Source of the DNA: Candidatus Cloacimonadota bacterium
GTDB lineage: Bacteria > Cloacimonadota > Cloacimonadia > Cloacimonadales > TCS61
Assembly: GCA_021735645.1 (NCBI GenBank)
Contig: JAIPGP010000020.1
Coordinates: forward strand, 1 to 45,191
Direction of reading: 5' to 3'
Length of the DNA stretch: 45,191 nt
Under the pieces are notes generated by a model. It ran no database searches, was not told where the DNA came from, and saw only the letters and a list, made by a program, of their open reading frames with translations. Position 1 is the stretch's first letter. The number at the start of each line of letters is the position of its first letter. The position numbers and the translations under genes are program-made. Shown in pieces: positions 1,182-45,191 of the stretch.

Positions 1182-1392
1182 AATAACCTCCTATTTTAAA
1201 AAATCTTATTTACTTACCTGGTCAGAGATTGCGTCATTACCTGTTATCTTGTGAAGGATAAAATTCCGGGATTTTTGTTGTTTTAGACTTAGGGGGGAGG
1301 GGAGTAATTGAAAATGTAAAATTGAAAATTGAAAATTGAAGAGGGGAGGGGGCGAAGGGGTGAGGGAGTGAGGGGGCGAGGGAGCGAAGGGG

Positions 1393-1424
1393 GACTTCTT
1401 GACTTCTTGACTTCTTGACTTTTT
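1393..1424. repeat. 8-nt tandem repeat, four units
   Basis: GACTTCTT is repeated three times, followed by GACTTTTT. It lies in non-coding sequence and is probably a slippage-prone microsatellite. Confidence 0.85.
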
Positions 1425-1801: not shown

Positions 1802-1836
1802 AATGTAATCAGACCAGGGATGGTCTGGGTACGCAC
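1802..1836. repeat. Dispersed hairpin element, copy 1
   Basis: AATGTAATCAGACCAGGGATGG-type sequence, with a CAGACC/GGTCTG stem and a following GGGTACGCA. It matches 6337-6370 almost base for base. A truncated copy lies at 1733-1750. It forms the outer part of the repeat that the group II intron interrupts. Confidence 0.8.
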
Positions 1837-1843
1837 ACTTCTC

Positions 1844-1885
1844 CCCGTCTCCCGTCTCCCGTCTCCCGTCTCCCGTCTCCCGACT
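1844..1885. repeat. 7-nt tandem repeat at the intron junction
   Basis: Five copies of CCCGTCT and one CCCGACT end exactly at the 3' junction of the intron (1885/1886). The uninterrupted paralogous repeat at 6378-6391 has only two such units, so the array has expanded here or contracted there. Confidence 0.85.
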
Positions 1886-1931
1886 GTAGAGTAGAGACAG
1901 GCTCAGGCGATTCCATCGCCTGCCCCCCTCA

Positions 1932-1965
1932 TCAAACCGTGCATGCGGTGTTCCGCACACGGCTT
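1932..1965 (-). ncRNA. Group II intron domain V
   Basis: Minus-strand AAGCCGTG pairs with CACGGTTT (8 bp). A 2-nt TG bulge follows, then a TGCGG/CCGCA upper stem. The AGC catalytic triad is at the base. The terminal loop is AACA, not a GNRA tetraloop; the right-edge copy has GAAAA. Domain VI follows at about 1887-1930. Confidence 0.85.
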
Positions 1966-1976
1966 ACCGACAAAGT

Positions 1977-3278
1977 TCATCGAAAGCATTCGCGGCTGTC
2001 AACAAGCTTGTAAATTATTGGGTCAATTAAACCATATCTCTTGGTTAAAACCTCAAAAGCTCCACGGCGATAGAGCTTACCAACTCGCTGACTTTTACGC
2101 TTGTAGTATATCCTGAGTCTGTCCCAGAGATAATTTTCAAGCTTGAATCTCCCTCCATTGGAATAGCTTACTCCTGGAATGATGATATAATTCAACCATC
2201 CCCGCATTATAGAATTTAGTCCCTTAGAAACTGCATACGGATTTTTCCTACCATTGTATCGTAGATAGTCACCCACTTTTTGACGTATATTAATTATACT
2301 CTTTTTAGTTGGTGAAATCCTGAGCCACTTCTTGTTTTTATTGTAGGAACTCCATACATACCTAAATGTAAAGCCCAAGAAATTAAATGGCTCTTGCCTT
2401 GCATTCAGAAGGTGTGTTTTGTCCGTATTGATAGTCAGTTCCATCCTTTCCAAGATAGTATGTAGGTAATTCATACATTCTGCGGGCATACGATATCCCA
2501 TCAATATGAAATCATCGGCATACCTGACAATATCTATCTTGTACTTCTGGAATACACCATCCTTCCTCTTTACAGCTTTATCTACCAGATTCAGGTAGAT
2601 ATTAGCAAGTAGAGGAGAGATAACTCCACCTTGTGGAGTACCTTTACTGTTCTTCTTAAATTGTTTTTCCTCATATACTGGTGCTTTGAGCCACATTCGG
2701 AGCAATTTCAATATTCTGCTATCCGATATACGCTGCTCAACCAGTATCATTAGCTTATCATGAGGAATGTTGTCAAAGTAACCACTGAGGTCAGCATCAT
2801 AAACCTGAACTTTACCTTGTTTCAGGTTATCGCTGATGACAGTTATGGCATCATGGGCAGAGCGTTTAGGACGAAATCCGAATGAGCAGTCCTCAAAATC
2901 GGCTTCGAATATTGGCTCTATAACCATTTTACAGCACATCTGCACTATTCTATCTTTGACGGTTGGTATTCCCAACGGTCTCAGCTTACCGTTTGCTTTT
3001 GGAATAAACACTCTTAGAACAGGTTGCGGTTTGTAGGTTTTGGTTCTCAATTCTTCTGCTATTTCCGATAGATACTTCTCAACTCCATACTTAATAACAT
3101 CAGATATCTTCAGCTCGTCATAACCGGCTGCACCACCATTGGCTTTTACCCGTTTCCACGCTTCACGCATTAAGTATCCAACTGTTAATTTGTCATAGAG
3201 CATATAAAAGCAAAATTCGCTTTCCTGCTTGGCTTTTCGATATAATTTACGCTGAAAAAAGACGCAGTCGTTCCTCAT
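1977..3278 (-). CDS. Group II intron reverse transcriptase/maturase (5' frameshift)
   Basis: The intron-encoded protein copies spliced intron RNA into DNA and helps splicing. The RT fingers and palm are intact: RPLGIPTVKDR at 100-110, DLSGYFDNI at 163-171, TPQGGVISPLLANIYLN at 214-230 and the catalytic YADD at 253-256. A maturase/thumb region follows (LGFTFRY, GWLNY). No C-terminal HNH nuclease is seen. The ATG at 3278 is not the ancestral start. A GTG at 3327, with GAGAGG upstream, opens a frame that reads through MTDEERLRLF and fits the usual RT N-terminus, but it is one base out of frame at a run of six Ts (3255-3260). With five Ts the protein would be 449 residues. The copy may be decaying, or the extra T may be a sequencing error. 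Confidence 0.92.
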   Translation of the reverse strand: MRNDCVFFQRKLYRKAKQESEFCFYMLYDKLTVGYLMREAWKRVKANGGAAGYDELKISDVIKYGVEKYLSEIAEELRTKTYKPQPVLRVFIPKANGKLRPLGIPTVKDRIVQMCCKMVIEPIFEADFEDCSFGFRPKRSAHDAITVISDNLKQGKVQVYDADLSGYFDNIPHDKLMILVEQRISDSRILKLLRMWLKAPVYEEKQFKKNSKGTPQGGVISPLLANIYLNLVDKAVKRKDGVFQKYKIDIVRYADDFILMGYRMPAECMNYLHTILERMELTINTDKTHLLNARQEPFNFLGFTFRYVWSSYNKNKKWLRISPTKKSIINIRQKVGDYLRYNGRKNPYAVSKGLNSIMRGWLNYIIIPGVSYSNGGRFKLENYLWDRLRIYYKRKSQRVGKLYRRGAFEVLTKRYGLIDPIIYKLVDSRECFR

Positions 3279-3828
3279 CAGTCATATCCTGACGTCGCTT
3301 GCTTTCCAGATTTCTTTCATCAATCACAAATTACCTCTCTTTCTCGTAAATTTCTTTGAAGTAATGTCCCTTCGCTACGAATGATTTATGCTAATCAAAC
3401 ATCAAGCACTACTATGGACACCTCCGACTTCCTGCACATCCAGTCATCACTTCGGTTACCCTTATAGATGACCGTTTAGGGTTGCCGTCCTTGAAACGCA
3501 GGAGCTCCCAAGTTCATCAAATGACATTTTACAGGCACGCAATCAGTTAAAACCCCGACAGCCTCTAATGGTGCTTTTTCCTATTACTTCCCATTAGATT
3601 ACCGGTTTCATCATAAGTGAAAGACTGACCGACTGTGTTTTAATAACGAGGCTAAACCTGTTCACTTTCGTTACAGCTTACCTGCTGCTTAGGAGAGCTT
3701 CGATCTGTGCCTTACGGCTGCAGCCGTCTCCTTCACTTCCGGCTGAATAGGAAATTAGCCGGATTGGACTTTCACCAACTAACCTATCAACGCTTCTTGG
3801 CGCACCACTATTCAGTGTTCACTACTAT

Positions 3829-4866
3829 TCATTTTGAACTGCGAACAAGGCGGAAGCCCAAATTGACAATGCTCTTACTATGCTCGAAGTAACCGCGGTA
3901 AGTCACATGACAGTCTCTGGCATCGTTGCTCCAGCTACCACCCCGAACCACACGGCCATCACCCATAAATGGACCCTTAGGGTTAGTCTGTTCACTACTG
4001 CTATAATTATATTTATACCTGTCCCAGCACCATTCATATACGCTGCCATTCATATCATAAATTCCTATTTCATTAGCCTGCTTACTACCAACACTATGTG
4101 TTTTACTACCCGAGTTACTCGAATACCATGCAACACTGCCAATATCATTGCTTCCTGAATATTTATACCCCTTGCTTTTATTTCCACCACGTGCAGCAAA
4201 CTCCCATTCCGCCTCTGTGGGCAATCTGTAACCATTGGCAGAAAAGTCACATTTAAAAAATATTAAGAATTTGCGAGAATAGCAGCGCTGCAAGCCATCT
4301 TGATCGCTTAATTTATTACAATAATTCACCACATCATACCAGCTTACTTTCTCTACCGGTGCATTAACACCTGAAATTTTAAAATAAGAAGGATTTTTGC
4401 CCATTACCTCTTCATATTCCCCTTGCGTCACCTCATGTATTCCAATATAAAAATCACTTAAAGTCACGCTATGCACCGGCTTTTCATTGTCATGACCATC
4501 ATTACTTCCCATCTGAAAAGTACCACCTTCCACAAAGACCATATTATCAGGTACATCACTTCCTTCATCCAGAGTTATTTGCCTTACTACTGTATCATCG
4601 GCAGACAAGCTAATATTCTCTTTATGAGTTTTGTGATTATCTGCACTTACAGTCAGTACATAATTTCCCACCGGAACTTCTGTAAAAGTTTCTCTGCCAT
4701 CGGCGGTATATAACTCACCTGCGTCTCCCAAAAGATTAATCTTTGCATCTGTGGGAATACACATCACCTGAATAGTACCATATTGCACTTCTGGGAATAT
4801 TTCTATTGTCTCATCAGCTTTGGATTTAAGAGTAATCACTCTGTTTATTGACTCTGCTTTTGGCAT
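3829..4866 (-). CDS. SUMF1/FGE-like domain, downstream part of an interrupted gene
   Basis: The first 90 residues continue the beta-rich PEGA-type repeats of the upstream frame. From about residue 105 there is a formylglycine-generating-enzyme-like (SUMF1) domain: MVFVEGGTFQMGS, EVTQGEYEEVMGKNPS, YRLPTEAEWEFAARGG, VRRGG-type VVRGGSWSNDARDCHV, and the terminal GFRLVR. Families of this kind are often structural or ligand-binding and not true formylglycine enzymes. The reading frame is the same as that of 4888-6000 and is separated from it only by a TAA at 4888-4890. No ribosome binding site precedes the ATG at 4866, so independent translation is doubtful. Together the two pieces would make a 723-residue secreted protein. 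Confidence 0.85.
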   Translation of the reverse strand: MPKAESINRVITLKSKADETIEIFPEVQYGTIQVMCIPTDAKINLLGDAGELYTADGRETFTEVPVGNYVLTVSADNHKTHKENISLSADDTVVRQITLDEGSDVPDNMVFVEGGTFQMGSNDGHDNEKPVHSVTLSDFYIGIHEVTQGEYEEVMGKNPSYFKISGVNAPVEKVSWYDVVNYCNKLSDQDGLQRCYSRKFLIFFKCDFSANGYRLPTEAEWEFAARGGNKSKGYKYSGSNDIGSVAWYSSNSGSKTHSVGSKQANEIGIYDMNGSVYEWCWDRYKYNYSSSEQTNPKGPFMGDGRVVRGGSWSNDARDCHVTYRGYFEHSKSIVNLGFRLVRSSK

Positions 4867-6336: not shown

Positions 6337-6410
6337 AATGTAATCAGACCAGGGATGGTCTGGGTACGCAGTCTTCTCCCGACTCCCGTCTCACTATTCA
6401 CAGTTCACTG
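6337..6410. repeat. Dispersed hairpin element, copy 2, uninterrupted intron target
   Basis: It contains the AATGTAATCAGACC hairpin, GGGTACGCA, two CCC-GACT/GTCT units and CACTATTCACAG. It is the empty-site counterpart of the sequence split by the group II intron: the position equal to the insertion point is 6391/6392. Confidence 0.85.
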
Positions 6411-6430
6411 TTCACTGTTCACTGTTCACA
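6403..6430. repeat. 7-nt tandem repeat GTTCACT, four units
   Basis: Three perfect GTTCACT units followed by GTTCACA, immediately beyond the dispersed element. The intron-bearing paralogue has one GTTCACT at the same place (3817-3823). Confidence 0.85.
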
Positions 6431-45059: not shown

Positions 45060-45191
45060 GTAGAGTAGAGACAGGCTTCAAGTATTCTATCCACCTGTCC
45101 CCCTCATCAAACCGTGCATGCGGTTTTCCCGCACACGGCTTTCCGACAAAGTTCATTCCAAGCATTCACAGTTTCATCAGTCGAATCTGCT
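45060..45191 (-). mobile_element. Second group II intron copy, 3' end only in window
   Basis: On the minus strand the last 132 bases hold an intron 3' region: domain V at 45107-45141 (AAGCCGTGTGCGGGAAAACC and onward, with the AGC triad), a domain VI stem (GGGGGACAGG/CCTGTCTC) and the end CTCTAC at 45060. It is homologous but not identical to the copy at 1886-3805, and it has the same orientation. The rest lies beyond the window. The bases past 45150 no longer read through as an intact RT end. Confidence 0.87.

What the first reader, a model, noticed from the sequence alone, without database searches (positions are those of the whole stretch)
1886..3805. Group II intron with both ends proven by an in-window empty site
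The flanks of the intron join into a repeat whose unbroken copy lies at 6337-6410. On the minus strand GAATAGTG|AG(T/A)CGGGAG is shared across the junction and the outer AATGTAATCAGACC hairpin also matches. This gives base-exact ends (GTGCG at 3805, CTCTAC at 1886). It also shows that this intron uses a multicopy intergenic repeat as its landing site, a safe-haven strategy.
Basis: seen in the sequence. Interest (0 to 1): 0.7.

Follow-up and report, generated by a model that had tools for sequence, protein, structure and literature searches.

The report
Intron that homes into tandem repeats
This is a self-splicing mobile intron in an uncultured Cloacimonadota-type bacterium, and it and its relatives insert almost only into short tandem repeats between genes, using a five-letter guide that changes to match the local repeat, so they can spread with little harm to the host.

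Summary
Window 1886-3805 (minus strand) is a complete 1,920-nt group II intron with GTGCG...CTCTAC ends. Rfam matches its D1-D4 and D5-D6 regions, and it encodes a reverse transcriptase/maturase with no endonuclease domain. Its joined flanks match 6337-6410, which is a paralogous (not orthologous) unoccupied copy. Close relatives in other genera sit in different heptamer arrays at the same phase. Lag-7 periodicity in flanks is 11.2/17 versus 5-6 expected, 0 of 50,000 resamplings. Sister subfamilies, including the one truncated at 45060, occupy another quasi-tandem repeat (..ATCCGTGnnATCCG|TGG..). An unbiased scan of intron-exon complementarity picks exon -5..-1 paired with intron nt 187-191 (EBS1) as its best signal. 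EBS1 covaries with the repeat occupied: CGGAT/ATCCG, CGAATT/AATTCG, CAGAT/ATCTG, CACTT/(A)AGTG. Only 10 of 76 junctions abut a long open frame, versus 76% of random points. I read this as an ordinary group II intron with an unusual, repeat-tracking homing specificity: a new variant of a known kind. Mobility was not observed, and the IEP class is unresolved.

The parts
1886..3805 (-). Group II intron, 1,920 nt, GTGCG...CTCTAC
   Evidence: Ends read directly; Rfam D1-D4 and D5-D6; same ends in relatives
3647..3781 (-). Domain I region, Rfam group-II-D1D4-4 (RF02003)
   Evidence: 67.2 bits, E 1.1e-12
3601..3636 (-). EBS1 stem-loop (intron nt 170-205), EBS1 in the 10-nt terminal loop
   Evidence: Consensus fold of 13 related introns, 3 of 9 pairs with compensatory changes
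3615..3619 (-). EBS1 (CACTT, intron nt 187-191)
   Evidence: Top hit of an unbiased exon-intron covariation scan, z=6.9, own 4.57/5 vs 3.13/5 for swapped pairs
3806..3810 (-). IBS1 (TAGTG) at the 5' exon end; 4 of 5 positions pair with EBS1
   Evidence: Sequence
3806..3828 (-). 5' exon: heptamer array remnant ..GTGAACA CTGAATA GTG|, starts right after the stop codon (3829) of the sulfatase-modifying-factor-like gene
1844..1885 (-). 3' exon: heptamer array |AGTCGGGAGACGGGAGACGGG..
   Evidence: D6; 15 of 17 lag-7 matches
1977..3278 (-). Intron-encoded reverse transcriptase/maturase (433 aa, YADD present, no HNH endonuclease domain)
   Evidence: TIGR04416 384.7 bits; RVT_1 and weak GIIM only; translation
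3247..3327 (-). Likely original N-terminus of the RT, in another frame (VIDERNLESKRRQDMTDEERLRLF..), interrupted at a T6 run 3255-3260
   Evidence: Three-frame translation against intact relatives L002, L116, L086
1886..1967 (-). Domains V and VI (RF00029)
   Evidence: 44.2 bits
1802..1838 (-). Dispersed hairpin TGCGTACCCAGACCATCCCTGGTCTGATTACATT downstream of the 3' array; not the target
   Evidence: About 46 places in the genome, most without heptamer array
6337..6423 (-). Paralogous unoccupied site: GTGAACA GTGAACT GTGAATA GTG.AGACGGG AGTCGGG + hairpin
45060..45191 (-). 3' part of a second intron of sister subfamily B, cut by the contig end; 3' exon |TGGTTGAATATCTTACATTACATT
   Evidence: RF00029 54.7 bits; 87% to window intron D5-D6, 9 identical copies in the genome
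6136..6162 (-). Unoccupied subfamily-B-type target TTCTGTGTGTTCCG|TGGTTAATAG
   Evidence: Sequence compared with B junctions

Best explanation
This is a mobile group II intron with an endonuclease-free RT/maturase. Its EBS1 loop (CACTT) recognises the AGTG or AAGTG end of a unit in intergenic heptamer arrays (GTGANNN)n and reverse-splices the intron between GTG and A. Every unit of an array is a potential target, and arrays lie outside genes, so insertion costs the host little. Without an endonuclease, the cDNA is probably primed from replication-fork strands, as in RmInt1. Related introns in the same order exploit other quasi-tandem intergenic repeats by changing EBS1. Shown by sequence: intron identity and ends, EBS1-IBS1 covariation, array preference, avoidance of open frames. 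Inferred: actual reverse splicing, fork priming, and benefit to the element.
For: Intron anatomy and RT. EBS1-IBS1 ranked first among all exon offsets and about 310 alignment columns (z 6.9), inside a conserved stem-loop with compensatory pairs. Examples: CGGATA/TATCCG, CGAATT/AATTCG, CAGGTG/CACCTG, TAATG/CATTA, CGGAGA/TCTCTG. Heptamer arrays: of ten A-subfamily flanks (nine sites, three genera), mean lag-7 matches 11.2/17 vs 5.05 (own genome) and 5.77 (G015) at non-ORF GTG|A sites; 0 of 50,000 resamplings reach it, and no other lag from 4 to 12 is comparably raised. The G015 3' flank |AGACGGGAGACGGGAGACGGGAGAAG nearly repeats the window's, in another genus. (GTGANNN)3: 135 vs 18 for the reversed control in the own genome. 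For the IBS1-type TYHG relatives, 35 of 43 junctions have a further unit upstream vs 28% of non-ORF sites. 10 of 76 junctions abut an open frame of 100 codons or more vs 76% of random points.
Against: At the window site EBS1 pairs at 4 of 5 positions (T-T mismatch at -5). EBS1 of the closest array-inserted relatives (G015, G048) is not visible because their contigs end inside the intron. One A-subfamily copy (G048:C104) lies in no array. Only nine A sites are known, so the numbers are small and partly related. No EBS2 was found, so 5 nt alone seems too little for specificity, and the IEP or array structure must add something not shown. No mobility, splicing or orthologous empty allele was seen. 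The RT frame is broken near its N-terminus in this copy (or the assembly is wrong), so this copy may be inactive.
Confidence: 0.8

Rival explanations
1. The intron inserts anywhere with a short IBS1 match. Insertions in genes are purged, and the repeats are simply what intergenic DNA in these genomes consists of.
For: Selection against genic copies is general for group II introns (PMC5894124), and (GTGANNN)n arrays and ATCCGTG repeats are common in these intergenic regions.
Against: Compared with non-ORF sites carrying the same core (GTG|A or TYHG|TG) in the same genomes, insertions are far more periodic: 11.2 vs 5-6 at lag 7, and 81% vs 28% with a recurrent unit.
Confidence: 0.13
2. The intron is a passenger of the composite array-hairpin repeat and was copied with it rather than inserting independently.
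For: Array and hairpin flank both the intron and the empty copy at 6337-6410.
Against: The hairpin occurs in about 46 places, mostly without array or intron. Relatives sit in different arrays with different downstream hairpins, always at the same GTG|A phase.
Confidence: 0.03
3. A class-C (IIC) type intron that recognises a terminator-like hairpin.
For: The IEP lacks an endonuclease, recognition uses EBS1 without a detectable EBS2, and a hairpin is nearby.
Against: Class C introns insert after terminator motifs (PMC4424553). Here the 5' exon is a heptamer array and the hairpin lies downstream, about 50 nt away. Sister introns have ATCCGTG repeats in the 5' exon.
Confidence: 0.04

Closest known systems
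Thermosynechococcus elongatus TeI3/TeI4 introns (CL/IIB1; PMC2882425)
   Same: Proliferated group II introns split into families by diverged EBS sequences, each with its own target; most copies intergenic
   Different: Targets there are dispersed single sites, an IS element or other introns, not tandem short-repeat arrays; some of their IEPs carry an En domain
RmInt1 (IIB3/class D, Sinorhizobium meliloti; PMC5894124, PMC8914252)
   Same: IEP without endonuclease; multicopy target; a lagging-strand template route is available
   Different: Homes into an insertion sequence. No sequence-level membership was tested here; an alphaproteobacterial (Mesorhizobium) IEP is about 41% identical to the window IEP
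Group IIC/class C introns at terminators and attC (PMC4424553)
   Same: Short EBS1-only recognition, no endonuclease, non-coding landing sites
   Different: Target is a tandem repeat array rather than an upstream hairpin
Pseudomonas putida group II intron in REP sequences (PMC1525189)
   Same: Some copies of a group II intron lie in an intergenic repeat
   Different: Only 2 of 9 copies there, palindromic REP; here nearly all copies, tandem units, with matching EBS1
Enterococcus, Mesorhizobium and E. coli introns with RF02003
   Same: Same Rfam D1D4-4 type, IEPs 41-46% identical
   Different: Landing sites not examined

Membership tests
Group II intron | GUGYG 5' end and AY 3' end | tested here: met
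   GTGCG...CTCTAC, shared by relatives
Group II intron | Domain V/VI and domain I structure | tested here: met
   RF00029 44.2 bits, RF02003 67.2 bits, both above gathering
Group II intron | RT/maturase ORF in domain IV | tested here: met
   TIGR04416 384.7 bits over cut-off 300; YADD present
Group II intron | EBS1-IBS1 pairing | tested here: met
   Covariation over 14 introns, z 6.9, best of all positions
Group II intron | EBS2-IBS2 pairing (IIA/IIB) | tested here: inconclusive
   No second signal in the scan
Group II intron | EBS3-IBS3 pairing | tested here: inconclusive
   Intron nt 256 complements +1 in 7 of 8 introns, but maxima of 7 or more arise in about 4% of permutations
Class C (IIC) | Insertion after a terminator or attC hairpin | tested here: not met
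   5' exons are mostly tandem arrays in 52 distinct junctions, read by eye and by periodicity or recurrence tests; no folding of each exon was done
Class D (RmInt1 type) | IEP phylogenetic class | not tested
   No class-labelled reference set at hand; only pairwise similarity to an alphaproteobacterial IEP
Class D (RmInt1 type) | IEP without endonuclease domain | tested here: met
   No HNH hit in Pfam or NCBIfam
Active mobile element | Retrohoming observed | not testable with these tools
   Only indirect: nine 3' ends of subfamily B are identical over the aligned region in the own genome

The most novel reading that the evidence does not exclude
A whole clade of group II introns in Cloacimonadales specialises on tandem short-repeat arrays, retuning a 5-nt EBS1 whenever the dominant intergenic repeat of a genome changes. 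The periodic array itself (same core every 7 or about 10 nt) would be part of the recognition: a fourth target class beside homing sites, terminators and attC.
Probability: 0.4. Interest if true: 0.65.

Novelty: new variant of a known kind. Interest (0 to 1): 0.5.

Why it matters
A 2015 review lists three target specificities for bacterial group II introns: homing sites, terminators and attC (PMC4424553). Introns that live in tandem intergenic arrays and follow them by changing one loop would show how a selfish ribozyme can multiply without hitting genes. They would also give a natural series of EBS1/IBS1 pairs for testing how little base pairing is enough for retrohoming.

Tried and rejected
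The CTATTCA loop (about intron nt 56) looks complementary to the window's TGAATAG, but the loop is conserved in relatives with quite different exons, so the match is coincidental. A search for EBS2 found nothing. Rfam type D1D4-4 does not settle the IEP class, since introns from several phyla match it. A genome-contig scan with the RT found only one relative, a Candidatus Cloacimonadota MAG, which gave the taxonomy. An orthologous empty site downstream of the sulfatase-like gene could not be identified, because that gene is a many-copy family in the sister genomes. Paper searches found no report of group II introns in heptamer arrays or in Cloacimonadota, but only open-licence papers were searched.

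Full report
What was checked. The window is contig C147 of a 3.77-Mb, 151-contig genome. A 'same order' genome held here (G090) contains the contig JAGOKK010000098.1 of a Candidatus Cloacimonadota MAG, so the host is a member of the same order, most likely Cloacimonadales (inference).

The element. On the minus strand 3805-1886 is a 1,920-nt group II intron: GTGCG start, CTCTAC end, Rfam D1-D4 type 4 at 3781-3647 and D5-D6 at 1967-1886. The ORF 1977-3278 is a reverse transcriptase/maturase with YADD and no endonuclease domain. Its natural N-terminus lies in another frame (start about 3327) and is cut off at a T6 run at 3260-3255; three relatives are open there. Either this copy is decaying or the assembly has one base too many. 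The intron starts 23 nt after the stop codon of a sulfatase-modifying-factor-like gene (3829-4866) in the same orientation.

The empty site. The joined flanks read ..GTGAACACTGAATAGTG|AGTCGGGAGACGGGAGACGGG..GAGAAGTGTGCGTACCCAGACCATCCCTGGTCTGATTACATT, and 6423-6337 reads ..GTGAACAGTGAACTGTGAATAGTGAGACGGGAGTCGGGAGAAGACTGCGTACCCAGACCATCCCTGGTCTGATTACATT. The local score is 98, against a shuffle maximum of 33. Because the sequence is periodic, the alignment can slip by 7 nt (it does), so the comparison fixes the junction modulo one unit. The intron's own ends fix it fully. The copy is paralogous.

What the landing site is. The 74-nt stretch is a mosaic. Its 3' half, the hairpin, is dispersed in about 46 places preceded by all sorts of sequence. 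Its 5' half is a run of 7-nt units GTGANNN. Such runs, (GTGANNN)3, occur 135 times in the genome versus 18 for the reversed control, and 125 vs 32, 95 vs 6, 405 vs 92 and 6 vs 1 in four relatives.

Relatives of this intron. Copies 94-96% identical at an end occur in two other genera (G015, G048), with an 88% copy and further 3' ends in G015 and G002. Their flanks are GTTAATCGTGAGACGTG|, GTGACTCGTGATTAGCGACTCGTG|, GTGAGAAGTGAGAAGTG|, AATTATGAATTATG|, |AGACGGGAGACGGGAGACGGGAG, |ATTGGTGATTGGG and |AGAAGTGAGTCGTGAGAAG. These are different heptamers, with the junction at the same phase, GTG|A (ATG| in one). One copy, G048:C104, has AGAAGTG| but no array. Over ten flanks the number of lag-7 identities is 11.2 of 17. 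At non-ORF GTG|A sites it is 5.05 in the own genome and 5.77 in G015, with no resampling of 50,000 reaching the observed mean and no other lag from 4 to 12 comparably raised.

The sister subfamilies. The second intron in the window (3' end at 45060) belongs to subfamily B, which has nine identical 3' ends, mostly at contig ends (a sign of unresolved multicopy sequence), and about as many 5' ends in the genome. B and further relatives in G001, G015, G017, G029, G048, G077, G094 and others mostly end their 5' exon in TCCG, TTCG, TCTG or TCAG within a repeat of the type AATCCGTGTNNATCCG|TGGTTAA. Of 43 such junctions, 35 have another unit upstream, against 28% of non-ORF sites with the same core. 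An unoccupied site of this type lies at about 6144/6143 of the window.

The recognition element. A scan of all exon offsets against all intron alignment columns in 14 introns gave exon -5..-1 with intron nt 187-191 as the strongest signal: 4.57 of 5 pairs with the own exon vs 3.13 with others, z 6.9. No second element emerged. The position lies in the loop of a conserved hairpin with compensatory changes, which is where EBS1 is expected. Pairs seen include CGGATA/TATCCG, CGAATT/AATTCG, CAGATT/GATCTG (one G-T pair), CAGGTG/CACCTG, TAATG/CATTA, CGGAGA/TCTCTG and CTGAT/TTCAG (4 of 5). In the window, CACTT pairs with 4 of 5 bases of TAGTG and would pair fully with AAGTG, the end of the common unit GTGAGAAGTG. 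A candidate EBS3 (nt 256) is not significant enough to claim.

Safe haven. Only 10 of 76 distinct junctions touch an open frame of 100 codons or more, versus 76% of random genome points.

Mechanism. The RNP of lariat and IEP most likely finds an array unit by EBS1 and reverse-splices at GTG|A. Having no endonuclease, it takes its primer from the replication fork, as shown for RmInt1 (PMC5894124, PMC8914252). Five base pairs are too few for a site in a 4-Mb genome, so further contacts (IEP, or the repeated array) must contribute; these were not identified.

Known or new. Families of introns with diverged EBS are known in T. elongatus (PMC2882425), and two of nine copies of a P. putida intron lie in REP sequences (PMC1525189). 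I found no report of introns specialised on tandem heptamer or ATCCGTG-type arrays, within an open-licence library only. I file it as a new variant of a known kind.

Noticed in passing
window 3247-3327: The RT reading frame is interrupted at a T6 run near the N-terminus; three relatives are open at this place. Real decay or a homopolymer assembly error.
   Followed up: partly
window 45060-45191: 3' end of a second, sister-subfamily intron at the contig end; its identical copies lie mostly at contig ends, so this intron probably broke the assembly.
   Followed up: yes
window 1802-1838 and 6337-6373; G000 C101:23087-23337, C131:39573-39760, C133:11-1426: Dispersed hairpin AGACCATCCCTGGTCT, also as tandem blocks with a 32-33 nt period and in 228-398 nt spaced series; function unknown.
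   Followed up: partly
L014/L015 (G000:C106:21357-21934) and L063 (G015:C73, 795 nt), L103 (876 nt): Shortened introns that keep D5-D6 but lack most of the RT ORF; possible ORF-less derivatives that could be mobilised in trans.
   Followed up: no
L062 (G007:C120), L103 (G053:C324): Divergent introns starting GTACG with exon CATTA|, not in repeats; in L103 the EBS1 TAATG matches, so this is a lineage with another target.
   Followed up: partly
window 1303-1424: Other short tandem repeats beside the intron: AATTGAAAATTG, GACTTCTT and (GGGGGCGA)n-like runs.
   Followed up: no
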